DNA from: Conexibacter sp.
Lineage (GTDB): Bacteria > Actinomycetota > Thermoleophilia > Solirubrobacterales > Solirubrobacteraceae
Length of the DNA stretch: 42,641 nt
Assembly (NCBI GenBank): GCA_025964325.1
Contig: JAOPZA010000120.1
Span: 1-42,641 of the forward strand
Direction of reading: 5' to 3'
Shown: positions 5,451-42,641 of the stretch, piece after piece
Position numbering within the stretch: the first letter of the stretch is position 1
Layout: each line of letters begins with the position of its first letter
The notes under the pieces: model-generated
The model's database searches: none
What the model saw: only the letters and a program-made list of their open reading frames with translations
What the model was told of the DNA's origin: nothing
Translations under genes and position numbers: made by a program

Positions 5451-5475
5451 GTCAGGTGAGCCTCCTGTGCGATGA

Positions 5476-6901: not shown

Positions 6902-7042
6902 TCCAAGCGCAGCGGTCAGGTGACGCTCGTGCTCCACGCCCCGGAGGCGCGTAGGCGCCCGGCGCTACCCGACGGCCGCTGCTCGCGGAGGCCAACAGCT
7001 CTCCCGCGCTCACGATGCCGCGCGATCGGATCGCCCATATGT

Positions 7043-8996: not shown

Positions 8997-9012
8997 ACGC
9001 CGAGCGTAGTTG

Positions 9013-9059
9013 ATAGCACCAAGTGTCATCCCTGCTACCGTGATGACACCAAGTGACAT
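9013..9059. promoter_or_regulatory. twin TetR-type operator between tetR and the oxidoreductase gene
   Basis: Two 17-bp elements of the form ATGNCACNNNGTGNCAT: 9043-9059 is a perfect interrupted palindrome and 9013-9029 has one mismatch (ATA at its left end). They share the core CACCAAGTG and are 30 bp apart, close to three helical turns, so two dimers would sit on nearly the same DNA face. The location between the divergent tetR and oxidoreductase starts is the usual place for an autoregulatory TetR operator. Confidence 0.8.
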
Positions 9060-9117
9060 AAGGCGGTCCTCCCGGGCGCGAGCGTGCCGAGGACGATCGC
9101 CCACCCGGAGGTCTCTC

Positions 9118-10026: not shown

Positions 10027-10283
10027 GCCCCGGCCCGCTACGTATGTGGCCGCGTGGACGGTGCCGCGCGCTGGGCCGAGCGATGCTCGCTGGGGGCCGC
10101 GGCACTTCACGGTGCTGAGCCTGGAACGGTTCGAGCAACTGAACGACGCTGCCGTCCGCATGGCGCACCTGGCGCGCTCGGGGGATTACCGAGCTGCCCG
10201 AGAGGCCCGGGCCCTCGACCGGCCGCGCCGGCGCCTGACGCTGCAGACCGGGCAGTGCGTGATGCGCGACGACGTCGGCCGTG

Positions 10284-11294
10284 TCACGCGGCGGGCACCG
10301 CGCGGTCCAGCTCCACCCCGCCGCCGTTGCGGATCGAGCAGCGTGCCGCCTCCAGCGCCTCGATGCAGGTTCGGACCTCGGCCCCCGATGCGATCGGGGT
10401 CCGCCCGTCGCGGGCGGCGGTCAGGAACTCGCGCATCTGCGCGTCGAAGTTCGGGCCGCCCTCGAGATAGGACCCGTACGTCTCATCGACGACCACCTCG
10501 TCGTTGACGACGAGACGAGTGTCATCGCTCATCCGCATGGTGAGGCCGTCCCCGATGATGAACCGCTCGTTGACACCTCTCCCCGTGGCGTTGAAGGACA
10601 CGTGTCCGACGGCCACGCCGCCAGACGGGAAGTCCAGGAGGATGGCCGCCTCGTCCTCACCCTCCCACTCCCTGCCGTGACGCGCAGCGCTGGCGCGCAC
10701 CCGTGTCGGGCGCTCGCCCATGAACCACAGGATCGTGTCCAAGACGTGCGGGGCGTTGAGGCCCAGCACCAAGCCGCCCGTCTTCTCCGCCGAGGACCAC
10801 CAATCGGTCAGCACGCCGGAGAACTCGACCGAGAGGCTGTGGACGATGCTGAACGGCCGGCCGGTCTCGTCGATGCGCCGCTTGGCTTCGAGCGCCGCCC
10901 TCGTGAAGCGGCGGCACTGGGCCGCCATCAGCACCACGTCGCTGCGCGACGCCGCCTCGATCATCGCGTCGGCCTCCGCCAGCGTGTTGGTCAGGGGCTT
11001 CTCGACGAGCACGTGACATCCGGCCTCCGCAGCCGCAACCGCCTGCGCGGCGTGGAGGTGGTTCGGCGAGCAGAGGACGACCGCGTCGAGCGTTCCCGCC
11101 GCGAGCGCCTCCTCCAGCTCCCCGTACACGTTCGACACGCCATGCCGGCGCGCGGCCTCCTCGCCGACTTCGCGGCGCCTGCTCACGAACGCCGTCAGCT
11201 CCGCTACGTCCGCGCAGGACTGAACCGCGCGGATGTGCGCCGGCGAGATCCTCCCCAGCCCGACCACTCCGACACGAAGTCGTTGCTCGCTCAC
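10284..11294 (-). CDS. Gfo/Idh/MocA-family dehydrogenase
   Basis: 336 residues. The N-terminal Rossmann fold has Gly-Leu-Gly-Arg-Ile-Ser (12-17), and the family hallmark Glu-Lys-Pro is at 98-100. The C-terminal half carries Gly-x-x-x-Asn-Ala-Pro-His-Val-Leu-Asp, where His183 and Asp186 fit the His/Asp catalytic site. Family members oxidise sugars, inositols or sugar acids with NAD(P). It is the last gene of the ten-gene operon, 11 bp after the SDR stop, with an AGGAGA site before GTG 11294. It probably performs one of the sugar-oxidation steps before the keto-deoxy acid dehydratase. Confidence 0.85.
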   Translation of the reverse strand: MSEQRLRVGVVGLGRISPAHIRAVQSCADVAELTAFVSRRREVGEEAARRHGVSNVYGELEEALAAGTLDAVVLCSPNHLHAAQAVAAAEAGCHVLVEKPLTNTLAEADAMIEAASRSDVVLMAAQCRRFTRAALEAKRRIDETGRPFSIVHSLSVEFSGVLTDWWSSAEKTGGLVLGLNAPHVLDTILWFMGERPTRVRASAARHGREWEGEDEAAILLDFPSGGVAVGHVSFNATGRGVNERFIIGDGLTMRMSDDTRLVVNDEVVVDETYGSYLEGGPNFDAQMREFLTAARDGRTPIASGAEVRTCIEALEAARCSIRNGGGVELDRAVPAA

Positions 11295-12064: not shown

Positions 12065-13593
12065 GCCCCAACCTCTCCGGTCGTCATCACGCCGTTCACG
12101 AGGCGTGCCAATCCACGTGGGTTCTCGTCGCGCAGCGCCGGCGGCAGCAGCGCGGCCGGGTAGTCCTGGAAGGTGACCGGGCGCAGGAAGCGCTCGATCG
12201 CAGCCGAGCCGACCGAGGTGTGCGCGGGGAACGTCGTAGCCGGCCAGGGCCCGCCGTGGTGCATTGCGTGGGTGACCGCGACTCCCGTCGGATAGCCGTT
12301 CCAGATCAAGCGTCCGGCCTTGTGCTCGAGCGCCTCGACGAGCGCCGCGACGTCCGGCGCCTCATGCGCCTCGGCATGCACGGTGGCGGTCAGGGTCCCG
12401 GGCAGCTCGGCGGCGATCGCCGTGAGCTCGGCCAGGTCGCGGCAGCGCACGATCACGCCCACCGCCCCGAAGTGCTCCTCCTGCAGGAGAGGGCTGGATC
12501 GGAACGCGTCCGCGTCGACCGCGACGACCGTCGCCGCGACGTCGAGGCGGCCGTCCTCCTGCTCCGGGAGCTCGCCCGCCAGCAGCTCGACGCCGCTCTC
12601 AGCGACGATCTCCGCGACCGCGCCGGCGAGCGCCTCCCGCATCCCCTGGTTGAGCATCGGCCCGACCCGCGTCCCGCGCGCCAGCCGCGCGACCTCGGCG
12701 GAGAAGGCGTCGGCGTCCGATGCCACGACGAAGACGACCCCCGGCTTCGTGCAGAACTGGCCGCTGCCCTGGGTCATCGAGGCGAAGAAGCCGGCGGCGA
12801 TCGCAGCGCCTCGCGCGGCAGCCGCGCCCGGCGAGACGAACAGCGGGTTGATGCTGCCCATCTCCGCGTAGACGGGAATCGGCTCCTGCCGCCCGGCGGC
12901 GGCGTCGAAGAGCGCGCGGCCGCCGCGCAGCGAGCCGGTGAAGCCCACCGCCTTGATGCCCGGGGCCGTGACCAGCGCCATCCCGATCTCGTGGCCGGCG
13001 CCGTGGAGGAGGGAGAACGTGCCCGCGGGCAGCCCGGTGCGCTCGACCGCCGCCTGGATCGCACGTCCACACAGCTCCGAGGTCTCAGGGTGCGACGGCG
13101 AGGCCTTGACGACGACGGGACATCCGGCGGCGAGCGCCGACGCCGTGTCGCCTCCGGGAACGCTGAACGCCAGCGGGAAGTTGCTGGCCGCGAACACGGC
13201 CACGGGGCCGATCGGCACGAGCATCCGGCGCAGGTCGGGCCGGTCCGGGTGTGCGGTGTCGATCGTCGCCTCGAGCTGCCGGCCGTCGTCGACGAGCTCC
13301 GCGAAGCCGCGCAGCTGCCCCGTCGTGCGACCGCGCTCGGAGCTGATCCGCGCGGGTCCGAGGGCGGTCTCGGCGTCGGCGACCTCCAGCAGCTCGTCGC
13401 CCAGGAGCTCCAGCTCGTCCGCGACCGTGCGCAGCAGCAGCGCGAGCCGCTCGGCCGGCAGGCGGCGCAGCTCGTCGAACGCGCTCGTCGCACGCTCGAC
13501 GGCGACCGCCACCTCCTGCGGGGTCGCCTCGGGGACGACGACGCCGCGCGCGAGCGACGTCCGGGCGTCGATCGACGCCAGCGTGGCGCTCAT
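12061..13593 (-). CDS. 2-oxoglutarate semialdehyde dehydrogenase-type aldehyde dehydrogenase
   Basis: 510 residues, ALDH superfamily. Asn138 (Ser-Asn-Phe-Pro), Glu244 (Tyr-Ala-Glu-Met-Gly-Ser-Ile-Asn-Pro) and catalytic Cys281 (Gly-Gln-Phe-Cys-Thr-Lys-Pro-Gly) match the subgroup called 2,5-dioxovalerate or alpha-ketoglutaric semialdehyde dehydrogenase rather than general ALDHs. Known reaction: 2,5-dioxopentanoate + NAD(P)+ to 2-oxoglutarate, the last step of Weimberg-type pentose or hexarate pathways. The dehydratase in the preceding gene makes exactly that substrate, which supports the assignment. It shares ATGA overlaps with both neighbours (13590-13593 and 12061-12064). Confidence 0.85.
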   Translation of the reverse strand: MSATLASIDARTSLARGVVVPEATPQEVAVAVERATSAFDELRRLPAERLALLLRTVADELELLGDELLEVADAETALGPARISSERGRTTGQLRGFAELVDDGRQLEATIDTAHPDRPDLRRMLVPIGPVAVFAASNFPLAFSVPGGDTASALAAGCPVVVKASPSHPETSELCGRAIQAAVERTGLPAGTFSLLHGAGHEIGMALVTAPGIKAVGFTGSLRGGRALFDAAAGRQEPIPVYAEMGSINPLFVSPGAAAARGAAIAAGFFASMTQGSGQFCTKPGVVFVVASDADAFSAEVARLARGTRVGPMLNQGMREALAGAVAEIVAESGVELLAGELPEQEDGRLDVAATVVAVDADAFRSSPLLQEEHFGAVGVIVRCRDLAELTAIAAELPGTLTATVHAEAHEAPDVAALVEALEHKAGRLIWNGYPTGVAVTHAMHHGGPWPATTFPAHTSVGSAAIERFLRPVTFQDYPAALLPPALRDENPRGLARLVNGVMTTGEVGA

Positions 13594-24030: not shown

Positions 24031-24393
24031 CTACGCCCCGGCGCCGACGGCGCCGCCCTCGAGTCCGTCCATGCCGGTGACCAGTTCCCGCGGGTCGGAC
24101 GTCAGCAGGAAGCTCGTGTCGCGGAGCACGAGTCCACCGATGTGCGTGGCGATCTGCCCTTGCAGCCAGTAGCCGTCGACCTCGAACCCGAGCTCGTCGC
24201 TGATCGCCTCGAAGTTCACCACCAAGCGGTCCTTGCAGCGGATCTCCACGAAGCTGTCGTTGTAGATCAGCTCCACGCCGTCGTTCTGCGAGAGGAGCGC
24301 GGCCAGCGCCTCGCCTTCCTCGGTGCGCTGCATGACGAGACCCACGTATGCGCTGCTCTCGCCCCAGCGGACGTCGCCGCCGTCACCGCTCAT
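24031..24393 (-). CDS. soluble diiron monooxygenase coupling/effector protein (MmoB/DmpM family)
   Basis: 120 residues. The core Val-Gly-Leu-Val-Met-Gln ... Gly-Val-Glu-Leu-Ile-Tyr-Asn-Asp-Ser-Phe-Val-Glu-Ile-Arg and Asp-Glu-Leu-Gly-Phe-Glu-Val region is the MmoB_DmpM fold. These cofactor-free proteins bind the hydroxylase and gate oxygen and electron delivery. Its ATG (24393) overlaps the beta-subunit stop (24390), as expected for stoichiometric expression. It is the last gene of the reductase-beta-coupling operon, matching the D position of prmABCD/mimABCD. Confidence 0.85.
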   Translation of the reverse strand: MSGDGGDVRWGESSAYVGLVMQRTEEGEALAALLSQNDGVELIYNDSFVEIRCKDRLVVNFEAISDELGFEVDGYWLQGQIATHIGGLVLRDTSFLLTSDPRELVTGMDGLEGGAVGAGA

Positions 24394-25436
24394 CGAGCCA
24401 CGGCCTCACGGTCGAGGGCCTCGAGCCCGAGCTGCGCCAGCAGGACGCTGCGATCGTGCTCGACCCGCTCCCTGACCCGCTCGAACGGGACGCTGGGGAG
24501 CGCGGCGAAGATCCCGCCGACGGCCTCGAGGGCCTCGTCCGCCATCGGCATCCACTCCGACAGCCAGCCGCCGATGACCTCGCGGTTGTGCTCCGCATGC
24601 TCCTGGTCCTCGAGCAGGTGGGCGACGAAGCCCGTCGCCCAGGCCTTGGCCCAGTCCCACTCCGCCTCGCCGGTGCGGCCGTAGACAGGTGTCAGCACGT
24701 CCCCGTTCGCGCTGGCGCCGTGCATCAGCAGCTCGCGCCGAAGCGCCACGCCGAGCAGCGGCTCGAAGACGATGTTCGACGCGACGATGATCTCGACCCA
24801 GTCGTGGACGGTCTCGAGACGCTCCAGATAGCGCCGGGTGGGCTGCCACGCGCCGTTCTCGAGGAAGTTGTGCTTGCCGCGCTCGGTGGGGAAGTCCCCG
24901 AGCACCTCATCGAGGTGCATCCCGTACAGCGCGAGCGCCTGTGCGTGTCGCAGCTTGAAGCCGCCCTGGAACGAGATGCAGTTGGCGACGCCGTCGCCCT
25001 CGGCCGGACGCATCGCGTGCGCCCACGGCATCACGAGCCCGTACTCGGCCAGTGCGATCGCCTGGAGGTTGTCCCGCAGGAACTCGACCCACGCGGGCGA
25101 GAAGCTCTCGTGCAGAGCGTTGGCGTCCGCAACGCTGAGGGCCGAGGATATCTCTCGGTCGGCGACCGCTCCCGCCTCGTAGAAATTGCGGCTCCAGAGC
25201 TCGCGCGGATCGGTGAACTCCCAGAACGACGTCGACTTGACCGCCGTCGCGTCCCAATACTGGGGGCGCCCGTCGGGGAACGCGACCTGGTAGCCGAACC
25301 TGAGATGCCGCTTCGTAGAGGCGACGACGTCGATCGTCACGTCCTCGTAGAGACTCCCGCGCTTGCGTTTGGGGTCGTACCAGTCGAACGATCGCTCGGT
25401 CTGGCGTGATTCCCTGCTGTTCAAATCCAGATCCAC
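24390..25436 (-). CDS. soluble diiron monooxygenase hydroxylase, beta subunit
   Basis: 348 residues with the ferritin-like helical fold of the hydroxylase small subunit. Recognisable stretches include Arg-Ser-Phe-Asp-Trp-Tyr-Asp-Pro, Phe-Gln-Gly-Gly-Phe-Lys-Leu-Arg-His-Ala-Gln-Ala-Leu and Trp-Ala-Lys-Ala-Trp-Ala-Thr. The beta subunit lacks the metal ligands and forms the scaffold of the (alpha-beta) dimer. GTG 25436 is chosen because an AGGAGAGAAGG site lies upstream; a longer open frame has no support. The order reductase, beta, coupling protein is that of propane/MimABCD-type systems. Confidence 0.85.
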   Translation of the reverse strand: MDLDLNSRESRQTERSFDWYDPKRKRGSLYEDVTIDVVASTKRHLRFGYQVAFPDGRPQYWDATAVKSTSFWEFTDPRELWSRNFYEAGAVADREISSALSVADANALHESFSPAWVEFLRDNLQAIALAEYGLVMPWAHAMRPAEGDGVANCISFQGGFKLRHAQALALYGMHLDEVLGDFPTERGKHNFLENGAWQPTRRYLERLETVHDWVEIIVASNIVFEPLLGVALRRELLMHGASANGDVLTPVYGRTGEAEWDWAKAWATGFVAHLLEDQEHAEHNREVIGGWLSEWMPMADEALEAVGGIFAALPSVPFERVRERVEHDRSVLLAQLGLEALDREAVAR

Positions 25437-25509
25437 TGCCTTCTCTCCTCCGTGTTGCTGCGCGTTGGTGGGAGCCTGCCCGAAGCGATCAGCCGGCCGG
25501 CACGGCGGT

Positions 25510-26577
25510 CTACGCCACTTCCTCCTGCGAGACCGCGCCGGTGTCGGTGAACGTGTCGTAGAAGATGTTGTCGGTGTCGATCCAGCGACTCCCCGAGAGC
25601 AGCTCGAGCGCCGCGTCGACCATGACCTGAGGGCCGGCGACGTAGGCCTCCCAGTTCGAGGGGTCCGGCGCGGAGTCCTCGAACGAACGGGCGACGGCCT
25701 GGTGCACGAAGCCTCGCTCACCGGTCCACGAGCCGTCGTCGTCGGCGAGCTGCGACAGGACTGGGATGTACTGGAAGTCCTCGATCTGACTTCCCAGCTC
25801 CTCGATCAGGTCGGTGTGGAACAGATCCTGCTGCTCGCGCCCGCCGTAGAAGAACCGCACCGTACGTCCAGCGCCGTCCGAGGCGATCTGGCGCAGCAGC
25901 GAGAGGATCGGCGCCATCCCAGAACCGCCGGCGACGAGCAGCTGCCGGCGGTCCGCAGACGAAGCGCGCAAGCAGCAGTTGCCGTACGGCCCGGTGAACT
26001 TCATCTCGTCGCCCACCTGCAGCGTGCCGTCGAGCAGTCGCGAGAACCGGCCGCCCGGGTAGCGCTTCATGATGAACTCGAGCTCACCGGTGTCGGACAG
26101 ATTCGCCATCGAGTAGGAACGCTTCTCGTCGGCGCCCGGGATCCACAGGTCGAGGTACTGGCCGGCCTTGAATCCGAAGTCCGCCGGCTGAGCGATCTCG
26201 AGCGTGAGCGACGTGATGTCGTGGGTGAGCGGCTCGATCGCGGTGACGCGTCCCAGCCCTTCCACGATCGGCCGCTCGAGCTTGTAGCTCTCGGCGTCGA
26301 AGTGCAGGAGCTCCACGCAGAGATCCGACTCCGGCATCGCGCGGCAGAGCAGTGCGAAGCCCTGCTCCTCCTCGGACTCGGAGAGCGCGAAGGTGGAGTG
26401 AGGCTTGTGATCCGTGTAGCCCTCGAGGACATAGCTCTTGCAGGCCGAGCACCGCCCCTCGCGGCATCCGGAGGCGAGGTTGTAACCGCTGCGGAAAGCG
26501 GCTGCGAGGACGGTCTCGTCCTCCGCGCACTCGAACTCGTCTCCGGTCTGCTCGATCCTGACGACATGCGTGTTCAC
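25510..26577 (-). CDS. monooxygenase reductase (2Fe-2S ferredoxin + FAD/NAD(P) oxidoreductase)
   Basis: 355 residues. N-terminal plant-type ferredoxin with cluster ligands Cys38, Cys43, Cys46 and Cys78. Next come an FAD domain with Arg153-Ser-Tyr-Ser and an NAD(P) domain with Ala-Gly-Gly-Ser-Gly-Met-Ala-Pro (216-223). It passes electrons from NAD(P)H through FAD and the 2Fe-2S cluster to the diiron hydroxylase. GTG 26577 is used. It is the first gene of its own transcript, with a consensus promoter and operator D, and is separated from the alpha gene by about 300 bp. Confidence 0.9.
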   Translation of the reverse strand: MNTHVVRIEQTGDEFECAEDETVLAAAFRSGYNLASGCREGRCSACKSYVLEGYTDHKPHSTFALSESEEEQGFALLCRAMPESDLCVELLHFDAESYKLERPIVEGLGRVTAIEPLTHDITSLTLEIAQPADFGFKAGQYLDLWIPGADEKRSYSMANLSDTGELEFIMKRYPGGRFSRLLDGTLQVGDEMKFTGPYGNCCLRASSADRRQLLVAGGSGMAPILSLLRQIASDGAGRTVRFFYGGREQQDLFHTDLIEELGSQIEDFQYIPVLSQLADDDGSWTGERGFVHQAVARSFEDSAPDPSNWEAYVAGPQVMVDAALELLSGSRWIDTDNIFYDTFTDTGAVSQEEVA

Positions 26578-26649
26578 GGTGTCCCCCAGCGCCGACTCTC
26601 GCGGCTGTTGGTGATCATCGGGTGGTTCGCGTTTCGACCAGGACAATCG

Positions 26650-26700
26650 AATGCGCAATCCATTGCATACGACCATAATGACTGTTTTGCCGTCTGTCAA
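26650..26700 (-). promoter_or_regulatory. reductase-beta-coupling promoter with LacI-type operator D
   Basis: Minus-strand -35 TTGACA (perfect, 26700-26695), 17-bp spacer, -10 TATGGT (26677-26672). Operator D (26650-26670) begins one base after the -10 and reads TGCGCAA-TCCA-TTGCATA (two mismatches in the right arm), with the ATCGA flank. It lies inside the monooxygenase cluster, so alpha and the other three components have separate controlled promoters. Confidence 0.8.
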
Positions 26701-26820
26701 GCGAGCGTTCGCGAGCATGTCCGGGCTCGCGTCCGCGCGCGGCGGCGACCTGGTCGAGCCGTCCGGGATCGGGCCACCGCCGCGATACTGCACGCGGCGA
26801 CGTCAGGCCCGAGAACGACG

Positions 26821-26852
26821 CAGCCGTGCCCCCGTCCAGGGAGGCACGGCTG
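26821..26852 (-). terminator. hairpin after the alpha-subunit gene
   Basis: A perfect 10-bp stem, CAGCCGTGCC (26821-26830) with GGCACGGCTG (26843-26852), and a 12-nt loop, starting 28 bp after the alpha stop. There is no T-tract. It would end the alpha transcript before the reductase promoter, or reduce read-through. Either fits two separately controlled units. Confidence 0.65.
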
Positions 26853-26880
26853 TCGAACGACCAGGATGTGACGGCGGCGC

Positions 26881-28602
26881 CTATCCGTGAGCGGCGAGCG
26901 TCTGCTCCCACTGCTCGGGCGACCAATGGCTGCCATTGCCCGACCGCCACGAGCTCGTGTGCTGGATCGCGTCCTCGGCGCTCGGGATGACGATGTTCGT
27001 GCCGTTCCCGTTCTTGGCGTCGAAGAAGCCATGGGGACGGGGCTTCCACGGCAGGCCCATCTTTTGCGCCATCAGGAAGTTGTTGCTCTCCATGTGGTCG
27101 CCGCAGGCCTTGATGTCGTCGAGCGTCCACTGCTTCGCGGGGTCGAGCTCGACGTGCGGCTGACCCATCAGGGTCTTCCCGTCCGGGCGCACGTAGCCGA
27201 GGTCGCGGACGATCTCCGAGTACTCCCAGCCGTGGTAGTACTCCTCCCACATCCGGTCGCCGATGTATCGGCCCGGATTGGTCTCGTCGATCCACTTGCA
27301 CTCCGGGGAGCAGTAGAAGCGCGTGTAGTCGTCCACGACCCGGTGACGCCGGTCTTCCTTGTGGTAGCAGCCGTTCTGGCAGGTCCAGCAGAGGGCGCCA
27401 GCCTCCTCGAGAGCGAGGCCGCCGACGATCTTGCGCTCATCCGGGTACTTCGCGTGCCGCAGTTCCTCCCAGAACCGTCCCCACCGTGCGTACCAGCCGG
27501 GGTACTTGTTCTCGAACCACTCGAAGTCGCGCTCGTCCAGAGCGTCCTGCTTGAACCACTGGAACGGCCAATAGGAATAGGCGCCGATCGCGGCGGCATG
27601 GCACTGGCCGTCGACGATTCGCTGCCGGGCCCGCTTGAAGATGTCCTCGGAGATGTTGATCCCCAGCTTGCTGAGGTTGCTGACGTAGGACCGGTAGTAG
27701 TCCTCCATCATCCAGCGGTCGAACTTCTCCAGCCAGCTCTCTTCCTCGGAGCGGTCCTTCGTCGCGTATTCGCACAGCACGCCGACGCCGGTGTCGACGT
27801 TGCAGTGCGACACCCAGTACATCTGCGTGATGTCCTGCTCGAGTCTCGGGATGTTCTCCGGCTCCTGCAGGAGGTAGAGCAGGGTGGCGTAGCCGTTGTT
27901 GATGTGGCGCGCCTCGTCGGATTGGATCGAGTTCATCATCGTCGGCATCGCGAAGTCGCCGTTGCGCGCCGCGACGTCCGGAAGGGCCACTGCGATCGTG
28001 TTCGTGAAGCCCGTCTCGATGACGACCTGCGTGCAGACGGCCGCCTGGATCGGGTCGCCAGTCATGAACTGGCCGAAGATGTTGAAGCCCCCCATGTTCA
28101 CGAACGAACGACCCGTCGCTCGGTGGCCCGCGTTCCAACCCACGGGCTCCGACAGGTGCTTCGTGTACCACCGGTACAGCGCCATCATCAGCCCGGTGTG
28201 ACGCTGCTCGTCCAGCATCTGGACGTAGTAGGCGTTGCGCAGTTCGTTGTCGGGGATGGCGTCGATCAGCAGTGACATGCAGCGGAGGGCGCCGGCCTCA
28301 CCCCCGGCGATGTTCGTGACGAACGGCTTGATCGCCTCGTGAAAGCGCAACGGCGCCGTGTTGGGAAGCCCCGCGCGCACGCCTGCATCGAGTCCGCCGA
28401 ACACGCGGTCGTCCTTCTCGAGCTGCATGTTCAGGTAGTCGCCCATGATCTGGCGCATCGGATCGCGGCCAGTCGTTCTCGGGATCTTGTACCGGGTGGG
28501 ATAGCGCGGCTCGGATTCGAAGTACGTCGGTGTCCAGCCGAGCTCACGGACTCGTGCGTGACTCGCGCTGATGCTTCTTCGTCGCGGGGCTGCAATGGCC
28601 AT
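26881..28602 (-). CDS. soluble diiron monooxygenase hydroxylase, alpha subunit (propane/THF monooxygenase-like)
   Basis: 573 residues. The diiron ligands are visible as Glu102, Glu132-x-x-His135, Glu196 and Glu230-x-x-His233 (Asp-Glu-Ala-Arg-His). A C-terminal Cys-rich segment (Cys-Trp-Thr-Cys ... Tyr-Cys-Ser-Pro-Glu-Cys) and Lys-Thr-Leu-Met-Gly-Gln-Pro-His are typical of the PrmA/MimA (group 5/6) hydroxylases. These hydroxylate propane, acetone, phenol, tetrahydrofuran or related substrates. The length is slightly above that of PrmA (about 545). The dedicated GroEL-like chaperonin that usually follows such clusters is not in the window. GGAGG precedes ATG 28602; its own promoter carries operator E. 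Confidence 0.9.
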   Translation of the reverse strand: MAIAAPRRRSISASHARVRELGWTPTYFESEPRYPTRYKIPRTTGRDPMRQIMGDYLNMQLEKDDRVFGGLDAGVRAGLPNTAPLRFHEAIKPFVTNIAGGEAGALRCMSLLIDAIPDNELRNAYYVQMLDEQRHTGLMMALYRWYTKHLSEPVGWNAGHRATGRSFVNMGGFNIFGQFMTGDPIQAAVCTQVVIETGFTNTIAVALPDVAARNGDFAMPTMMNSIQSDEARHINNGYATLLYLLQEPENIPRLEQDITQMYWVSHCNVDTGVGVLCEYATKDRSEEESWLEKFDRWMMEDYYRSYVSNLSKLGINISEDIFKRARQRIVDGQCHAAAIGAYSYWPFQWFKQDALDERDFEWFENKYPGWYARWGRFWEELRHAKYPDERKIVGGLALEEAGALCWTCQNGCYHKEDRRHRVVDDYTRFYCSPECKWIDETNPGRYIGDRMWEEYYHGWEYSEIVRDLGYVRPDGKTLMGQPHVELDPAKQWTLDDIKACGDHMESNNFLMAQKMGLPWKPRPHGFFDAKNGNGTNIVIPSAEDAIQHTSSWRSGNGSHWSPEQWEQTLAAHG

Positions 28603-28671
28603 GCTTTCGGGACCTCCTCCGTGGTGTGCTCGAGCGCGCGGCTCGCCGCTCTGCAAATAGGGCGCAAATCG

Positions 28672-28725
28672 AATGCGCAACCCATTGCGAAGGTCGACGG
28701 TAACTGTCACTATGACCGCTGTCAA
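28672..28725. promoter_or_regulatory. divergent alpha / ALDH promoter region with LacI-type operator E
   Basis: For alpha (minus): -35 TTGACA (28725-28720), 17-bp spacer, -10 TACCGT (28702-28697), with operator E (28672-28692) just downstream. It reads TGCGCAA-CCCA-TTGCGAA (one mismatch). For the divergent aldehyde dehydrogenase (plus): a weaker -35 TTGCGA at 28685-28690 inside the operator and -10 CACTAT at 28708-28713, also 17 bp apart. One bound repressor could thus silence both directions. Confidence 0.75.
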
Positions 28726-33577: not shown

Positions 33578-33754
33578 TCAGCGCTCGGCGGGCGCGGGCT
33601 GGGGCTCCTCGGCCTTCTCGCGCTCGTCCCCCTGCAGCCGCACCTCCTGCTCGCGCTGCTCCGGCGGCACGCCCGTCTCACGCTGGAAGGCCTCCCACAG
33701 CTTGCGTGACTCCTCCTCGTCTCGCCGCTGCCGGGTCCTGCGGTCGTAACACAT
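33578..33754 (-). CDS. small highly charged helical protein, 58 residues
   Basis: Starts Met-Cys-Tyr-Asp-Arg-Arg-Thr-Arg and continues with Glu/Arg-rich helix (Glu-Glu-Glu-Ser-Arg-Lys-Leu-Trp-Glu-Ala-Phe-Gln-Arg-Glu), possibly a coiled coil, ending in a Pro-rich tail. GGAGG is well placed before ATG 33754. Function unknown. It is divergent from the 3D-domain gene; its start codon region overlaps an alternative start of that gene. Confidence 0.6.
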   Translation of the reverse strand: MCYDRRTRQRRDEEESRKLWEAFQRETGVPPEQREQEVRLQGDEREKAEEPQPAPAER

Positions 33755-33782
33755 GTGCCCACCTCCACGATGGTCGGATCCG

Positions 33783-34802
33783 ATGCCGATCCATCGTCCT
33801 GCCGCCCCGGTGGCCTGGCAAGCGGCGAGGTCCGACGAAGCAGGGGATCCGGCGCGCGCCTCTCGCCCGCGTCGTCGCGCCGCCGGGGCGCGTTCACGCT
33901 CCCGCCGCTCGCTACCGTGCGCTGGAGTGCTTGGGGTTATCGGCCGGCGTGGGATCGCGTGCGCGGCAGGCGCGCTGATGACGGTGGGCGGGGCGACGCT
34001 GGTCTTCTCCGCCGGGCCCTCGCGCGCCCCGGCCCCACCCCCGACCCGGCCGCCAGCGCCCGCGCACCGCGCGGCCGCCGCGAACCGTCCCGTCCACTCC
34101 TCCGCGAAGTCGCCCGACTGCCAACCCGGCCGGCCCGTCCACGAGCACCTGATCACGCGCCCCACCTGGCTGCGAGACGTCTCCATCACCGAGTACTACT
34201 CCTCCCCCGAGCGGTGGTTCGTCGGCCGGCGCGTCGCGGCGCCGGGCCTGGCCGGACGCCATCGCGTCGACTGGCTCTACTCGGCGCGCGGCGTGGCGAT
34301 GGAGGGCGACGGCATCGGCCTCGACGGTCGCCACCACCACATCGACGCGCTCGGCTCGGGCGCCTGGGTCAACGCCGACGGCCGGCGCACGACGCCCGGA
34401 CGGTGCGCCGCGCACTGGTCGCACGGACTCCCGTCCTGGCTGCAGGGCGGCTGGCGCAACCGGCTCGGGCACGTGACCTTCCCGCTGGCGGGCGGCGGGT
34501 GGTCCAACGGCACCGGCGGGCCGCTCCTCTCCTACCGCGGCGTCACGTTCGCGCCCGGCTCGTCGCTGCCGCTGCACCCCTACCGCACGCTCGCGGTCGA
34601 CCCGCGCCTCATCCCGCGCGGCAGCCGCGTCTACGTCCCCGCCTACCGCTCGATCAGCGGCGGCTGGTTCCTCGCCCAGGACACCGGCGGCGCGATCATC
34701 GGCCAGCACGTCGACGTCTACCGGCCGCCCACCGCCGCGCCCACCGACGGCGGCCGCTTCCTCCAGCACGAGCGCGTCTACGTCGTGCCGCCCGGACGCT
34801 GA
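33783..34802 (+). CDS. exported 3D-domain (MltA C-terminal/double-psi-like) protein
   Basis: 339 residues. An Arg-rich N-terminus and a hydrophobic segment (Gly-Ala-Leu-Met-Thr-Val-Gly-Gly-Ala) suggest membrane anchoring, then a Pro/Ala linker. The C-terminal domain has the three aspartates that name the 3D fold: Leu-Ala-Val-Asp-Pro-Arg-Leu-Ile-Pro-Arg-Gly, Ala-Gln-Asp-Thr-Gly-Gly-Ala-Ile and His-Val-Asp-Val-Tyr. This domain occurs in lytic transglycosylases and Rpf-like cell-wall proteins, so a peptidoglycan role is plausible. The start is uncertain: ATG 33753 is in frame but overlaps the divergent small gene. Confidence 0.75.
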   Translation: MPIHRPAAPVAWQAARSDEAGDPARASRPRRRAAGARSRSRRSLPCAGVLGVIGRRGIACAAGALMTVGGATLVFSAGPSRAPAPPPTRPPAPAHRAAAANRPVHSSAKSPDCQPGRPVHEHLITRPTWLRDVSITEYYSSPERWFVGRRVAAPGLAGRHRVDWLYSARGVAMEGDGIGLDGRHHHIDALGSGAWVNADGRRTTPGRCAAHWSHGLPSWLQGGWRNRLGHVTFPLAGGGWSNGTGGPLLSYRGVTFAPGSSLPLHPYRTLAVDPRLIPRGSRVYVPAYRSISGGWFLAQDTGGAIIGQHVDVYRPPTAAPTDGGRFLQHERVYVVPPGR

Positions 34803-35267: not shown

Positions 35268-36503
35268 CTACGGCGACAGGATCAGCCCTGAGCGCACGAC
35301 CGCACGCCACTTCTCGATGCAGTTGTTGCCCATGCCGAGGTAGTTCCACTGTGTCTGGGCATCGAGCGGCTGCATGTTGCCCGCCGCGTCCGTCGCGCGA
35401 CAGGCAAGGACGTAGTCGCCGTCCGACGGGCTCCAGTCGACCGCCCAAGGCGTCCAGCTGTACGGTGACACGGGGCTCCCAAGCTTCGCTGGCGTCCACG
35501 TGCGGCCGTCGTCGGCGCTGAAGTCGACCCTGGCGATCGGCCCCGACCCGGACCATGCCTTGCCGACGACCGTTTGCGGACCGGGCTCGACCCAACGGCT
35601 GGCCGTGCCGGTATCGGTGACCCCCGGCGGCTTCATCGCCGCGCGCACACGAACCGCCGTCACAGGCTGACCGGGATCGACAAACGGGTCGTGCTGGGTG
35701 TAGCGGTAGCCCCGCAGCCGCTCGTAGCCGGTAAACGGCCGATCGAGCACCTCGATCTCCTTCAGCCACTTGGTGCTGTGCGTGCCGTACCAGCCTGGGA
35801 TGAGCACCCGCAGCGGGAAGCCGTGCGCCGGCCGCAGGGCCTGACCGTTGGCCTCCCAGGCGAGGATGACGCCGTCCTCCAACGCCTTCTCGACCGGCAC
35901 GCTCTGGGCGTACTCATGGAAGTCGAGGCGGCTGACGCCACGGTCGTGGCCTCGGAACACGACATCGACAGCACCGGGGCGTACGCCGGCCTCTCGCAGG
36001 ATCGGCGCGAGCGGCGCGCCGACGTATTCGAAGGCACCGATGGCTTCCTGGAACCAGGGGACGAACACGGGCCGCGGGTCCAGCCACGCACGACCGTTGC
36101 CCGCGCACTCGAGCAGCGTGACCTGCGTGACGTTCTCGCGCGCCTGCAGGTCCGTGAGCGGGATCCGCATCGGGCGCTCGACGTGACCGTACACCGCGAC
36201 GCTGTATCCGGCGCCGTCAAGCCTCGGGATGTCGAAGTGGTGCAGCTGGTAGTGGTCGTCGAGGGGCGTGACATCCTCGCCCAGCTGCTCCAGGTGGAAC
36301 CCGTGGTCGCGGAAGGCGCTGCGGACCTCCTCGTAGGCCACCACCCCGCCAGTCCAGCCGATCTCGGTCTGCTCGGGTTGCGGAGGCGGGTCCTGCGGGC
36401 CGGGCGGCGGAGTGGGGAGATTGGCGGCGCGCGACGTGTCATCGAGCAGGAGCCCGCCAGCGCCGGCCATCACAGCTCCGCGCAGGAACTCACGACGTCT
36501 CAT
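35268..36503 (-). CDS. Tat-exported sulfite oxidase-family molybdopterin enzyme
   Basis: 411 residues. Twin-arginine signal Arg-Arg-Arg-Glu-Phe-Leu-Arg-Gly at the very start. The molybdenum-ligand cysteine is Cys133 in Leu-Leu-Glu-Cys-Ala-Gly-Asn-Gly-Arg, followed by Phe-Arg-Gly-His-Asp and Gly-Phe-Pro-Leu-Arg-Val-Leu-Ile-Pro-Gly-Trp-Tyr-Gly, all typical of the oxidoreductase molybdopterin-binding domain. The C-terminal Mo-co dimerisation domain (Ala-Arg-Val-Asp-Phe-Ser-Ala-Asp-Asp-Gly) is intact. No heme domain and no partner cytochrome gene nearby. GGGAGG precedes ATG 36503. The physiological substrate may be sulfite or an S/N-oxide. Confidence 0.85.
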   Translation of the reverse strand: MRRREFLRGAVMAGAGGLLLDDTSRAANLPTPPPGPQDPPPQPEQTEIGWTGGVVAYEEVRSAFRDHGFHLEQLGEDVTPLDDHYQLHHFDIPRLDGAGYSVAVYGHVERPMRIPLTDLQARENVTQVTLLECAGNGRAWLDPRPVFVPWFQEAIGAFEYVGAPLAPILREAGVRPGAVDVVFRGHDRGVSRLDFHEYAQSVPVEKALEDGVILAWEANGQALRPAHGFPLRVLIPGWYGTHSTKWLKEIEVLDRPFTGYERLRGYRYTQHDPFVDPGQPVTAVRVRAAMKPPGVTDTGTASRWVEPGPQTVVGKAWSGSGPIARVDFSADDGRTWTPAKLGSPVSPYSWTPWAVDWSPSDGDYVLACRATDAAGNMQPLDAQTQWNYLGMGNNCIEKWRAVVRSGLILSP

Positions 36504-36532
36504 GCGTCGCCTCCCTTCTAATCGAGGCACCG

Positions 36533-36787: not shown

Positions 36788-36849
36788 TCACGGATCGACG
36801 GGATTACGTTCCCTTTTTCCCTGCGCTACCAGCAGGCACGACGACGTCC

Positions 36850-36960
36850 TGGCTGCAGGTCCACGCCAAACGCGGCCGCCGCGAGGGTTCCGCTCACGCG
36901 CGACGCGCACGAGGCGCTGCAGGACTGGTTCGACGTTCGTCCCGAGTGCGCCAGGGGGGC
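36850..36960 (+). pseudogene. fragment of a tyrosine recombinase core
   Basis: Leu-Gln-Val-His-Ala-Lys-Arg-Gly-Arg in one frame is followed, after a frame change at about 36885, by Arg-Val-Pro-Leu-Thr-Arg-Asp-Ala-His-Glu-Ala-Leu-Gln-Asp-Trp-Phe. This is the Lys-Gly-Gly-Lys ... Val-Pro-Leu ... Glu-Ala-Leu pattern in the catalytic core of phage-type integrases. The Arg/His-x-x-Arg/Tyr parts are not visible. The fragment is 230 bp from a tRNA 3' fragment, where integrases are normally found. Confidence 0.4.
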
Positions 36961-37190
36961 GTTGGCGCGTCCCCCGGGCGACCGCCCATCTGGGACGGCG
37001 CAACGAACATAGGTGGAGCGACGCAGCAGGCCAAGACCCGCGGCGCATACTCAGGAGCGCCGACGCGTTCGCCTCCGCCGCCCGTTGGGCCACGATTGGG
37101 CCACGAGCCTCCGAGCTGGCACCGTGGCGCTCAAAAAATGAGGAGCGTATGAGACCGCAAGCCACCCCGTTTGCAGCGCATTTCGCCGCA

Positions 37191-37232
37191 AGCCGACGCC
37201 CGGACTCGAACCGGGGACCCCTTCATTACGAG
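37191..37232 (-). repeat. 3' half of tRNA-Thr(CGT), probable integration attachment scar
   Basis: On the minus strand this reads from the anticodon loop (CTCGTAA, anticodon CGT at 37230-37228) through the anticodon 3' stem TGAAG and a perfect T-arm (CCCGG-TTCGAGT-CCGGG) to the acceptor strand CGTCGGC. The 5' half is missing: upstream of the anticodon the 27-31 position bases cannot pair with TGAAG, and no D-arm or matching acceptor strand is found. This half-tRNA shape is what integrases of the tyrosine family leave at element ends. Confidence 0.7.
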
Positions 37233-37331
37233 GCGCGCCTGGTCGACCAGACTGGTGTGTCGAATTGCAGCGGCTTCGCGTTCTCGACCGCAGCGCAGAC
37301 TGCAGCGATTTGAAGCGGTTTGAAGGGGGTT

Positions 37332-37372
37332 TGGGCCACGAGGAAGGTGTCCGTGGCCCATTGAGCTCAATG
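37332..37372. other. hairpin and 14-bp palindrome near the attachment scar
   Basis: An inverted repeat TGGGCCACG (37332-37340) / CGTGGCCCA (37352-37360) with an 11-nt loop is joined directly to the perfect palindrome CATTGAGCTCAATG (37359-37372). No T-tract follows, so it is not a clear terminator. It may be a protein-binding or transfer-related site of the element, or chance. Confidence 0.4.
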
Positions 37373-37455: not shown

Positions 37456-40204
37456 CTCGGCGACGAGCAGGTCAGCCGGGCGACGCGCGAGGCCCACGAG
37501 GCCGCCGTCGACGCCGCGCTCGAGTACATGGAACGCCACGCCGCAATGGGCCGTCGCGGCAAGGGCGGCTCGATCTCCGTACTCGGCAACGGCTTCATCG
37601 GCGCCGGCTTTCGCCATCGCACCAGCCGCACCGGCGACCCCCAGCTCCACACGCACGTCCTCGTCGCCAACATGACCCGCGGGCCCGACGGCCGATGGAC
37701 CGCCCTGGACGCACGCCGCCTTTACACCCACGCCCGCACCGGCGGCTTCCTCTACCAGGCCAAGCTGCGCCTCGAGCTCACACGCCGGGTCGGCGTCGAG
37801 TGGATGGCGGTGCGCAACGGCGTCGCCGAGGTCGACGGGATCCCCGCCGCGGTGCGCCGCGCGTTCAGTCGACGTCGCAGCGAGATCGAAGCCGAGCTCG
37901 AGCAGCGCGGCGACCACTCCCCCGGCGCGGCACAGGTCGCGGCGCTGCACACGCGCCAAGGCAAGGACTACGCCGTCCCGGTCAACCAGCTTCGCGAACG
38001 CTGGACCGACCGCGCCCGCCAGCTCGACCTCACCCCCGAGCACGTCGACGCGCTCACCGAACAGACGCACATCACGCCACTCACCCCGGCCGCAGCACAA
38101 GACGGCCACCAGCAGCTCGCATCGCCCACCGGACTCACGCAGCGCCGCTCCTCCTTCACCCGGCGCGACGCCGTCCGCGCGTGGTGCGAGCAGCTGCCCC
38201 ACGGTGGCGACGTCCACGAGATCGAGGCGCTCGCCGACGACCTGCTCGCAAGCCAGGCCGTCGTCGCGCTGCTCCCGTATGCCGCTACGCCGACCGTCGG
38301 AGACGTCGTCCGTCGTGCCGACGGACGCCTCCTCGCCGCCGGCAGCGCGGAGCGCCGCTACTCCACACCAGAGCTGCTCGCCCTCGAAGCCCCAGATCAT
38401 CGACACCGCCCGCGACGGCCGCGATCGCGACCGCGGATCCGTCCCAGCGCCGCACACCGAGGCGGTCCTGGCCTCGCGGCCTGAGCTCAGCGACGAACAG
38501 ACCCAGATGGTCGCCCGACTCCTGCATGACGGTGACGCGATCGCCGTGGTCGTCGGCCGGGCCGGCACCGGTAAGACCTACGCACTGGACGCCGCGCGCC
38601 AGGGCCGGCAGGCGGAGGGCTATCAGGTCATAGGCGCGGCGCTCGCTCGCCGCGCCGCCCTCGAGCTGCGCGACGGCGCCGGGATCGACGCGACGAGCCT
38701 GCACGCGCTCCTGGCCGACCTGCGTGACCGCCCGGATGAGTTGCTGTCGCGACCGACGGTGATCGTCATCGACGAGGCGGGTATGGTCGGCACGCGCCAG
38801 CTCGCCGAGCTCACAGCCCACGCCAAGCAGCACGACGCCAAGCTCGTCTTGGTCGGCGACCCGCGCCAGCTGCCCGAGATCGACGCCGGCGGATCGTTCC
38901 GCGCGCTCAGCATGCGAGGAGACCCGATCGTCCTCTCCGACAACCGCCGCCAACACCAACGGTGGGAACGCGAAGCCCTCGAACATCTCCGTAGCGGGCA
39001 CGCCGAGCAGGCGATCTCCAGCTACGCCGAACACGGTCAGCTCACCGTGGCTGACACCAGCCCACAGCTGCGCGACCAGCTTGTGGCCGACTGGTGGCAG
39101 GCTCGCGAGACGGGTGCCGACGCGGTGATGATCGCCCTGCGCCGCGACGACGTCGCAGACCTCAACGCCCGCGGTCGCGCCCGGATGCACCACGCTGGCC
39201 GTCTCGGATCCGATGTGCTCGCCGTCGCCGGGCATAGCTTCGCCGTCGGCGATGAGGCCGTCTGCCTGCGCAACCACCAAGGACTCGGCGTCACCAACGG
39301 CACCCACGGCACCGTCACCCACATCGACGCCAACCGCGGAGCGCTACGCCTCGTCGACCGCGCCGGCCGCGAGTATGAGCTGACCGCGGACTACCTCGCC
39401 TCGACCACCCAGCGCGGCGGTCCCGTGCTCGACCACGGCTACGCCCTGACCGGCCACAAGGCTCAGGGCCTCACCGTCGATCAGGCGTTCGTCCTCGGCT
39501 CCGATCAGCTCTACCGCGAGTGGGGATACGTGGCCATGAGTCGTGGCCGCGCAGGCAACCACCTCTACCTTGTTAACGCGCATGACGACGACCGCGATCT
39601 CGCCGTGGCGCACGCCGACGAACGCCGGCCCGCCCCGCTTGAGGCGGCGGCCCGGTCGCTGAGCCGAAGCGCTGCGCAGACCAGCGCCATCGACGCCACG
39701 CTTGCTGCGAAGCTCTCGTCCGCGTCGACCCCGGCGCTGGAACGTCGCATCGAGGAGCTGCGCCGCGATGACGCCACCGCGCAACGTCGCGAACGTCGTG
39801 ACAAGGCGCTCGCCCACCGCGCCGCACGCCTGACCGGCCGGTCGGCGACGCCCCCACAGCCCACCACGCCGGAGAGTCACGCGGTCGAGCGCGCATTCGT
39901 TGCCGACGAGCTCAGCCGGCGACGCCAGCGTGCGGGCACCGCGCGCACGAGTGATCCACCCCGGTACATCGTCGGCGCGCTCGGTCCCGTTCCTGACTCA
40001 CTCGTGACCCAGCGGCGCTGGCGCGCCGACGCCGAACGCATCGAGCGGCTGCGCCGCGACACCGGATTCACTGACCCCGAGCACGCGCTGCCCGGCCGCG
40101 CCGACGCCCAGCACCGCGCCGACCTCGACCGGTTGCGCCGGGATATCGCGACAGGCGAGCGGCCGATCGATGCAAGGGAAGCCACACGCGAGATCGAGCG
40201 CTGA
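37456..40204 (+). pseudogene. MobF (TraA/TrwC-like) conjugative relaxase-helicase, 5'-truncated and frameshifted
   Basis: From 37456 the frame reads Leu-Gly-Asp-Glu-Gln-Val onward, including the metal-binding His-x-His motif (Gln-Leu-His-Thr-His-Val). The N-terminal catalytic tyrosine region upstream is gone. Near 38388-38394 the homology moves to another frame and continues as the RecD2-like helicase: Walker A Gly-Arg-Ala-Gly-Thr-Gly-Lys-Thr, Walker B Val-Ile-Asp-Glu-Ala-Gly-Met-Val, later Gly-Asp-Pro-Arg-Gln-Leu, and a C-terminal Arg-rich tail to TGA at 40202-40204. The helicase half is still fully open (about 600 codons), but transfer ability is lost without the relaxase tyrosine. Confidence 0.85.
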
Positions 40205-40512: not shown

Positions 40513-40911
40513 TCAGTCGGGCTGGGTGAGCGCCATCAGCCGGCGGGCGTGCTTGCCCGCGCCGCTGTAGGCGACGGCGGCCAACCGAGCCACCTCACGA
40601 TCAGCCAAGACGTAGAGAACGAAGTTGCCGCGGCGCGAGCATTCGACGACCGGTGCGTCGTGTAGCACCCGCAGGTGCCGCGACACGGTGGCCGTTGCCA
40701 TGCCTGTCGCGGCAGCGATCTCGCTGAGGTTCTTGCCACCGCCGGCCAGCGCCACGACGATCCGCAGCTGATCGGGGTGACCCAGCGGCTTCAGCCGATC
40801 CGCCGCGACCGACCTCACGAACTCCGGAGCCAGCCCGCTCCACGACGGCACAGACCGGCCCGGCGCCGAACCGCCGTCTCCTCGGGCGAATCTAGGGCTG
40901 TGCTCGGGCAT
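40513..40911 (-). CDS. ArsR-family transcriptional regulator (first of two)
   Basis: 132 residues. Winged helix: Pro-Asp-Gln-Leu-Arg-Ile-Val-Val-Ala-Leu, Leu-Ser-Glu-Ile-Ala-Ala-Ala-Thr-Gly-Met, Thr-Val-Ser-Arg-His-Leu-Arg-Val-Leu-His. The recognition helix lacks the Cys-x-Cys of metal-sensing ArsR/SmtB proteins, so it may sense something other than arsenite or zinc. ATG 40911 has GGAGG upstream; ATG 40947 is possible. Transcribed after the second ArsR gene, about 50 bp downstream. Confidence 0.8.
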   Translation of the reverse strand: MPEHSPRFARGDGGSAPGRSVPSWSGLAPEFVRSVAADRLKPLGHPDQLRIVVALAGGGKNLSEIAAATGMATATVSRHLRVLHDAPVVECSRRGNFVLYVLADREVARLAAVAYSGAGKHARRLMALTQPD

Positions 40912-40959
40912 CGCGTCAGCGACCTCCAATGCCCCAGATTCCCGCATGCGTTACACCAT

Positions 40960-41364
40960 TTATTGGCCGCCGACCTCGCGGCGGCGTCCATCGCCCACGC
41001 CGCCAAGTGACTCTGCCACCCGGTCGTCCGGCACTCCGGAAGCCAATGCAGACATCTCCCGAAGATGCTGCGCGACGCTGCCGACAACATCCTCAAGCAA
41101 CTTCACGGTCGACTGGTCCTTCAGCGCGTCGAACACGTTCGCCCCGTCCGGGCGTCGCGTCACCAGCCCCGAGCGATGCAGGATCTGCAGATGCTTGGAC
41201 ACATTCTGCTGGCTCAGGCCGAGCGCGTCCGCCAGCTCTTGAGGCGTGGCCGCGCCACCCGCGAGCTGCTCAACCAAGCGCAGCCGGACGACCTGACCCA
41301 GGATCGCAAGGCGCTCAGCGACCCGTGTCATCAGGCCCTCTGCGATCAACGCGCGCTCGCTCAC
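40960..41364 (-). CDS. ArsR-family transcriptional regulator (second of two)
   Basis: 134 residues, GTG start at 41364. HTH: Thr-Pro-Gln-Glu-Leu-Ala-Asp-Ala-Leu-Gly-Leu-Ser-Gln-Gln-Asn-Val-Ser-Lys-His-Leu-Gln-Ile-Leu-His-Arg-Ser-Gly. No Cys pair for metal binding. It lies 18 bp after the antiporter stop and in line with the first ArsR gene, so the three probably form one transcript, with one or both regulators controlling the antiporter. Confidence 0.8.
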   Translation of the reverse strand: MSERALIAEGLMTRVAERLAILGQVVRLRLVEQLAGGAATPQELADALGLSQQNVSKHLQILHRSGLVTRRPDGANVFDALKDQSTVKLLEDVVGSVAQHLREMSALASGVPDDRVAESLGGVGDGRRREVGGQ

Positions 41365-41382
41365 CGCCCAGAGGGGTGTGCG

Positions 41383-42641
41383 TCAGCCGGCCGTGGCTGC
41401 GGGAACCGGGTCGCCGCTGCGGGCGGCCACCGAATGCTCGCGGCTGTCCCGCGAGGAGATCAGCGCGAAGGCTAGGATCGCACCGGCGCCGGCGAAGCCG
41501 GCGCCGACCAGGAACGCCCGGTCGAACCCCTTGGTCAGGGCAACGGAGGGGTCGTGCACTCCGGAGTGGAGGAGGCTTTGGGTGCGGCTGTTGGCGATCG
41601 TCGCGAGGATCGCCAGTCCAAGCCCCCCGCCAATCCGCTGCGCGGTGTTGATCAGACCCGATGCCAGCCCCGCCTCATGCGGCCTGGTCCCGGTGACCGC
41701 GGCGATCGTCACCGACACGAACGCGAACCCGAACCCCACGCCCGCAAGCAGCGACGGGCCGAGCACGTCAGCGGCATATGAGCCTCCCGGCGCGGGCACT
41801 CGCGAGAACCAGGCCAGGCCGCCGGCGATCATCAGCAGCCCGGCGATCAGCGTCGGCTTAAACCCGATCCGCGTGACCAGCTGGGACGCGAGCCCGGCCG
41901 CGATGACGATTCCGACCGCCAGCGGCAGGTACGAGAGGCCCGTCTTGATCGGCGAGTAGTGCAGGACGTTCTGGAGGTACAGGGAGATGAAGTAGAACAT
42001 CGAGAACAACGCCATGCCGAGCAACAAGCCGACGAGGTTGGCGCCGCGCAAGGTCCGCAGCCGGAAGATCGAGAACGGCATCAGCGGGTGGCGCTGGCGC
42101 CGTTCGATGACCAGGAACGCGAGCAGCAAGAGCACGGCCCCGCCGATTTTCAGCAGCGTCGTCGAGGATCCCCAGCCGGCGTTGACGGCGTCCACAATCG
42201 CGTAAACGAGTAACGAGAGGCCGGCGGTGACGGTCACGGCGCCCGGCAGGTCAAAGGTGCTCGTGCCGTTCTCGGCGCGGCTCTCGAGCAGCGTCCGAGG
42301 CGCGGCTGCCGCCGCGGCGATCCCGATCGGGACGTTGACGAACAGCACCCAGCGCCAGCTGAGACCGCTGGTTAGGATCCCGCCGAGGAGCACACCGGCC
42401 GCGCCGCCGGCGCCCGCCACCGCACCCCAGATTCCGAGCGCCCGGTTGCGCTCGGAGCCCTCGGCGAAGGTGGTCGTGATGATCGACAGCGCCGCCGGGG
42501 AGACGATCGCGGCGCCGAGGCCCTGGATCGCCCGCGCCGCAAGCAGCCATCCCTCGGACTGGGCGATCCCGCCGGCGAACGAGGCGAGCGAGAACACCAC
42601 CAGGCCGAGCATGAACATGCGCCGGCGCCCGAGCAGGTCGG
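41383..42641 (-). CDS. MFS drug:H+ antiporter (DHA2/EmrB-QacA type), 5' end beyond the window
   Basis: The visible part (about 419 codons) starts at the end of helix 2 (Asp-Leu-Leu-Gly-Arg-Arg-Arg-Met) and covers the remaining ~12 helices of a 14-helix exporter. It includes motif C-like Gly-Pro/Gly-Gly segments and Trp-Arg-Trp-Val-Leu-Phe-Val-Asn-Val-Pro-Ile-Gly, which is nearly diagnostic for this group. The C-terminus is complete. Exports lipophilic compounds or antibiotics with proton antiport. Start codon lies outside the window. Confidence 0.9.
   Translation of the reverse strand, partial: DLLGRRRMFMLGLVVFSLASFAGGIAQSEGWLLAARAIQGLGAAIVSPAALSIITTTFAEGSERNRALGIWGAVAGAGGAAGVLLGGILTSGLSWRWVLFVNVPIGIAAAAAAPRTLLESRAENGTSTFDLPGAVTVTAGLSLLVYAIVDAVNAGWGSSTTLLKIGGAVLLLLAFLVIERRQRHPLMPFSIFRLRTLRGANLVGLLLGMALFSMFYFISLYLQNVLHYSPIKTGLSYLPLAVGIVIAAGLASQLVTRIGFKPTLIAGLLMIAGGLAWFSRVPAPGGSYAADVLGPSLLAGVGFGFAFVSVTIAAVTGTRPHEAGLASGLINTAQRIGGGLGLAILATIANSRTQSLLHSGVHDPSVALTKGFDRAFLVGAGFAGAGAILAFALISSRDSREHSVAARSGDPVPAATAG

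What the first reader, a model, noticed from the sequence alone, without database searches (positions are those of the whole stretch)
37191..37256. Half tRNA-Thr(CGT) marks an integration boundary
Only the anticodon-to-3' half remains, with a perfect T-arm. It is directly followed by two overlapping palindromes, AGGCGCGCCT (37231-37240) and CTGGTCGACCAG (37239-37250). By the usual rule for 3'-half duplications, the element lies on the upstream side of the fragment (higher coordinates), which is where the relaxase remnant and the antiporter are. The nearby integrase fragment at 36.85 kb is on the other side, so a second element or a deletion between att sites is possible.
Basis: partly seen in the sequence, partly recalled or inferred. 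Interest (0 to 1): 0.6.

Follow-up and report, generated by a model that had tools for sequence, protein, structure and literature searches.

The report
tRNA-Thr fragment at a mobile-element junction
The half tRNA gene is a real scar left by mobile DNA that inserts into a threonine tRNA gene, but it joins the ends of two inserted elements rather than an element and plain chromosome; this is a known kind of hotspot in a poorly studied soil-bacterium group.

Summary
The fragment is real: window 37191-37232 (minus strand) matches 41/42 bp of the 3' half of the genome's own intact tRNA-Thr(CGT), which lies on another contig (C16:10670-10742) beside a glpD-like gene conserved across the genus. The break lies exactly at the anticodon loop (CTCGTAA), as in most tRNA-Thr 3' halves I found in relatives. 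It is therefore the core of a tyrosine-integrase attachment site.

The 'boundary with chromosome' reading is only partly right. Both sides carry element-type arms. The left side (36955-37190) is 77% identical to the DNA next to the intact tRNA on C16. It belongs to a portable block (paired GGGCCACGA sites overlapping an integrase tail) that also sits beside tRNA-Thr(TGT) and tRNA-Phe in other genomes. The right side (to about 37365) resembles the far end of C16's 10.4-kb element, which carries a complete Hachiman defence system. The window thus shows an attP-like arm-core-arm junction between two decayed elements, most likely part of a tandem array. The 'second element' alternative is favoured. 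The array model is directly supported in a congener (G004 against the empty site in G002). The palindromes are real but unremarkable. C53 could not be linked physically to the tRNA contig.

The parts
37191..37232 (-). att core: 3' half of tRNA-Thr(CGT), from the anticodon loop to the 3' end
   Evidence: 41/42 identity to intact tRNA-Thr(CGT) at G000:C16:10670-10742; same 5' break point in fragments of other genomes
36955..37190 (+). left attP-type arm of the element lying to the left; in the reading frame with WATIGPR it looks like an integrase C-terminal tail
   Evidence: 77% identity over 283 bp (core included) with the flank of the intact tRNA on C16; alignment of five loci; tail of a real integrase in G123, and 55% identical to that tail at G003
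37087..37106 (+). two direct repeats GGGCCACGA, 11 bp apart (proposed integrase arm-type sites)
   Evidence: conserved in all five aligned loci, the second copy as GGCCACGA in one; motif scan; TTGGGCCACGA occurs only 6 times in the 4.3-Mb genome, all at such sites
37233..37365 (+). right attP-type arm of the element lying to the right, with an inverted pair GGGCCACGA (37333-37341) / CGTGGCCC (37352-37359)
   Evidence: 71% over 105 bp to C157 and 74% over 54 bp to the arm at C16:422-473
37231..37250 (.). overlapping palindromes AGGCGCGCCT and CTGGTCGACCAG
   Evidence: present as stated, but 146 and 44 such palindromes occur in the window and they are not conserved at sister sites
36840..36960 (+). 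possible integrase remnant, frameshifted
   Evidence: Phage_integrase E=0.095 on a hand-joined reading; weak
37456..38272 (+). MobF/TrwC relaxase remnant lacking the N-terminal part
   Evidence: TrwC E=2.6e-56 covering profile positions 92-285 only; MobF
38423..40204 (+). relaxase-associated helicase part, in another frame
   Evidence: AAA_30 E=1.7e-53; TraA_Ti E=8e-94
40513..42639 (-). probable cargo: two small regulators with ArsR-like helix-turn-helix and a DHA2-type MFS pump cut by the contig end
   Evidence: MFS_1, EmrB-like; the regulators are read by eye from the translation
35268..36530 (-). nearest intact gene on the left: sulfite dehydrogenase-like molybdopterin enzyme
   Evidence: Oxidored_molyb E=4e-48, below the cut-offs of SorA/SoxC models; only 43% to the best gene in the genus

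Best explanation
The window contains the junction of two decayed integrative elements that used tRNA-Thr(CGT) as their attachment site. A tyrosine integrase exchanges strands in the anticodon loop (CTCGTAA). Each element carries the 3' half of the tRNA in its attP, so each insertion rebuilds the tRNA and pushes the previous 3' half outward. Repeated insertions leave a series: tRNA, element, 3' half, element, 3' half. At 37191-37232 such a displaced 3' half sits between the right arm of the element at higher coordinates (relaxase remnant, regulators, efflux pump) and the left arm plus integrase tail of an older element at lower coordinates. Shown: the core, its break point, similarity of both flanks to element arms, and the array pattern in relatives. 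Inferred: that GGGCCACGA is the integrase arm site, that this junction belongs to the array at the C16 tRNA, and the order of events.
For: Core 41/42 identical to the genome's intact tRNA-Thr(CGT). Break point at CTCGTAA shared with displaced halves in G004, G009, G012, G018, G023, G034, G035 and a shorter piece in G007. The left flank matches the flank of the intact tRNA on C16 and in G001; the block occurs in only 6 of 146 family genomes, beside tRNA-Thr(CGT), tRNA-Thr(TGT) or tRNA-Phe in most of these places, so it travels. In G123 it is the 3' end of a tyrosine integrase gene running into tRNA-Phe. The right flank matches C16's far arm and C157. TTGGGCCACGA occurs six times in the genome, all at these arms. 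C16:282-10670 is a 10.4-kb element with integrase and HamAB, bounded by the intact tRNA and a degenerate 3' half. G034 has two elements with 92% identical integrases, one directly after the tRNA and one directly after a 3' half, the same geometry as here. G004 versus G002 gives the filled and empty site.
Against: The contig cannot be joined to C16 or C227: its right end has no overlap with another contig, and its left end continues into C88. The next chromosomal gene of the genus at this site (RecD2-like) lies in G000 on C125 with no fragment nearby, so the locus is rearranged. No second 3' half is found further left in the window. The integrase remnant is weak. The genome is a draft of 251 contigs.
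Confidence: 0.68

Rival explanations
1. Simple island boundary: the element lies on the right and chromosome on the left; the similarity of the left flank to C16 reflects old chromosomal DNA downstream of the tRNA, duplicated along with the 3' half.
For: The left flank at C16 also directly follows the tRNA 3' end; in G004 the duplicated stretch extends about 46 bp past the tRNA into the terminator.
Against: The same flank occurs beside tRNA-Thr(TGT) and tRNA-Phe in other genomes, in only 6 of 146 family genomes, and is an integrase tail in G123. The empty site in G002 has a terminator and the RecD2-like gene instead.
Confidence: 0.12
2. An unrecombined attP: the window is, or derives from, a plasmid-like element with its own attP (left arm, core, right arm of one element), integrated elsewhere by homologous recombination or transposition, or free.
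For: Both arms are present around a full core and a MobF relaxase lies beside it. The contig has no proven link to the tRNA locus.
Against: The relaxase lacks its N-terminal part and is frameshifted, and no working integrase was found in the stretches of the window that were searched. The DNA to the left holds catabolic and transport genes without plasmid functions among the genes scanned.
Confidence: 0.17
3. A chance tRNA-like fragment or an assembly artefact.
For: Draft assembly; some contigs share 127-bp ends.
Against: E about 1e-11 for the core alone, a matching break point in independent genomes, and matched arms on both sides.
Confidence: 0.03

Closest known systems
tRNA-integrating genomic islands as catalogued in Islander (PMC4383910)
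   Same: 3' tRNA fragment displaced by a tyrosine-integrase island; crossover at the anticodon loop (site class A, 2083 of 3919 islands there); tandem arrays known (125 with two or more); integrases extending across attP known (Mx8, SSV).
   Different: Only the degenerate junction is seen here, without a functional integrase, and the link to the intact tRNA is not assembled.
Actinobacterial integrative conjugative elements and mobilizable elements in tRNA genes
   Same: Site-specific insertion in tRNA genes by tyrosine integrases and a relaxase gene beside the site (general knowledge; related literature located, not read).
   Different: The relaxase is a broken MobF type and no transfer genes were found among those scanned; C16's element carries integrase, regulators and Hachiman but no relaxase among the genes scanned.
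Hachiman (HamAB) defence islands
   Same: The element at the intact tRNA on C16 in the same genome carries HamA and HamB.
   Different: It is not in the window.

Membership tests
tRNA-targeting integrative element att site | 3' fragment of a tRNA gene nearly identical in core to an intact copy in the same genome | tested here: met
   41/42 bp
tRNA-targeting integrative element att site | fragment and intact tRNA on one replicon, same orientation, element between them | tested here: inconclusive
   intact gene on another contig with no overlap to C53
tRNA-targeting integrative element att site | functional tyrosine integrase in the interval | tested here: not met
   only a weak remnant in the window; an intact integrase occurs on C16
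tRNA-targeting integrative element att site | empty site in relatives | tested here: met
   G002 empty, G004 filled with two inserts, at the tRNA locus; not shown for the left flank of this contig
tandem array | each member has its own fragment and integrase | tested here: inconclusive
   fits in G034; in the window only arms and remnants
integrative conjugative element | intact relaxase and transfer genes | tested here: not met
   relaxase truncated at the N-terminus and frameshifted; no other transfer gene among the genes scanned

The most novel reading that the evidence does not exclude
A family of Solirubrobacterales elements keeps one set of integrase arm sites (paired GGGCCACGA, written into the integrase's own C-terminal codons as WATIGPR) while switching core targets among tRNA-Thr(CGT), tRNA-Thr(TGT), tRNA-Phe and perhaps tRNA-Val and tRNA-Asp. 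That would allow the arms to outlive the integrase and serve related elements.
Probability: 0.3. Interest if true: 0.4.

Novelty: new member of a known kind. Interest (0 to 1): 0.22.

Why it matters
It documents tRNA-Thr(CGT) as a recurrent insertion hotspot in Conexibacter-like bacteria, with at least ten of 61 genomes compared carrying extra 3' halves and one element carrying Hachiman defence. It also gives a short sequence tag (paired GGGCCACGA) for finding related elements.

Tried and rejected
Palindromes as functional sites: not conserved at sister sites and common in the window. Joining C53 to C16 or C227 by 127-bp contig overlaps: C227-C16 and C88-C53 join, C53's right end does not. Placing C53 by the genus's chromosomal neighbour: the RecD2-like gene is on C125 without a fragment. 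Placing it by the 3D-domain gene at 33753-34802: relatives share a 56% similar protein but no neighbouring genes and no tRNA there. The scan of public genomes for the paired motif gave 10 stretches: 5 have a tRNA 3' end close by in the expected orientation, one more has a tRNA-Asp fragment on the other side, and the rest look unrelated.

Full report
What is there. The window is the whole contig C53 (42,641 bp) of a draft genome of 251 contigs. The minus strand of 37191-37232 reads CTCGTAATGAAGGGGTCCCCGGTTCGAGTCCGGGCGTCGGCT: anticodon loop, one stem strand, variable loop, T-arm and acceptor strand of tRNA-Thr(CGT). No complete tRNA is in the window. One intact tRNA-Thr(CGT) was found by this search in the genome, at C16:10670-10742 on the minus strand; the fragment differs from it at one position.

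Is it more than chance? The core alone scores E about 1e-11. Displaced 3' halves starting at the same base, CTCGTAA, occur in G004 (two, one with changed bases in the loop), G009, G012, G018, G023, G034 and G035, and a shorter one in G007; a few others extend further 5'. The wider search lists extra 3'-half matches in at least ten of 61 genomes, this one included. The shared break point is what a tyrosine integrase with its crossover in the anticodon loop would leave; Islander counts 2083 such anticodon-centred sites among 3919 islands (PMC4383910).

The left side. The 236 bp left of the fragment match the DNA next to the intact tRNA on C16 (77% over 283 bp including the core) and on G001:C124. 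Aligned with two further places, beside tRNA-Thr(TGT) in G001 and tRNA-Phe in G003, they share two GGCCACGA sites exactly 11 bp apart, plus TGGCAC, CGCTCA and TGCAG blocks. The block is in only 6 of 146 genomes of the family, some by short matches only. In G123 the two sites are the 3' end of a tyrosine integrase gene (Phage_integrase E=6.4e-16) that runs into tRNA-Phe, coding WATIGPR; the G003 copy is 55% identical to that tail. In the window and C16 the same frame is open through the core. So the left flank is the end of an element, not plain chromosome. The integrase-like stretch further left (about 36.84-36.96 kb) is weak.

The right side. About 130 bp right of the core resemble C157 and the far arm of the C16 element, with an inverted GGGCCACGA pair. 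Beyond it lies a MobF/TrwC relaxase that starts at profile position 92, so the N-terminal part (which holds the catalytic tyrosines in this family, from general knowledge) is missing, and whose helicase part is in another frame; then two small regulators and a DHA2-type efflux pump cut by the contig end. TTGGGCCACGA occurs six times in the whole genome, all at these arms: C16 (2), C53 (3), C157 (1).

The intact locus. C16:282-10670 is an element of about 10.4 kb: integrase (5509-6993), regulators, and HamA and HamB of the Hachiman system, bounded by the intact tRNA and a degenerate 3' half with about 17 extra bases in the anticodon arm. The same altered half occurs at C227:19735, and C227's last 127 bp equal C16's first 127 bp, so the two contigs are probably neighbours in the assembly graph: at least two inserts in a row. 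The glpD-like gene on the 5' side of the tRNA is conserved in G001-G006.

In G002 the tRNA is followed within about 650 bp by a RecD2-like gene (empty site). In G004 an integrase-bearing 6-kb insert, a 3' half, a 1.5-kb insert and a second 3' half lie between them, and the flank of the outermost half aligns with the G002 empty site. In G034 two elements with 92% identical integrases follow the tRNA and a 3' half respectively: the same half-then-integrase geometry as in the window.

What could not be shown. C53's right end joins no other contig; its left end joins C88. The RecD2-like gene of this genome is on C125 with no fragment near it, so the genome is rearranged or the array ends elsewhere. 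Whether C53 is part of the array at C16, or an attP carried elsewhere, is open; I give the array junction 0.68.

Verdict. Real, and a known kind of thing: a displaced tRNA 3' half between element arms.

Noticed in passing
L008 (G000:C16) 282-10670: A 10.4-kb element at the intact tRNA-Thr(CGT) carrying integrase, helix-turn-helix regulators and a complete Hachiman (HamA, HamB) system.
   Followed up: yes
L071 (G020) 6648-9313: A host 5' half of tRNA-Thr(CGT), then 9 bp later a different intact tRNA-Thr(CGT), then about 2.5 kb away a chimera of the new 5' half with the old 3' half: an element seems to have brought its own whole tRNA and replaced the host's.
   Followed up: partly
L066 (G036) 13037-13074: A 38-bp 5' half of tRNA-Thr(CGT), 100% identical to the G000 tRNA, about 10 kb from an intact tRNA of another sequence; a displaced 5' fragment rather than the usual 3' one.
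   Followed up: no
L008 282-330 and L009 5736-5783: Two tRNA-Thr 3' halves share an extra stretch of about 16-17 bp (GGCCCAATTCGCCCGA) in the anticodon arm.
   Followed up: no
L010 7990-8094 (G000:C157): A right-type arm without a tRNA core, abutting what looks like a truncated helicase gene: possibly an element end at a non-tRNA site or a deletion scar.
   Followed up: no
L118 1810-1993 and L113 7515-7713: Paired GGGCCACGA sites beside a tRNA-Asp fragment (Actinomycetota MAG) and a tRNA-Val (Patulibacter), suggesting further targets of the same arm type.
   Followed up: partly
window 24390-28725: Two Phenol_Hydrox-family hydroxylase subunits with an FAD/2Fe-2S reductase: a soluble diiron monooxygenase cluster in a lower-GC stretch.
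   Followed up: no
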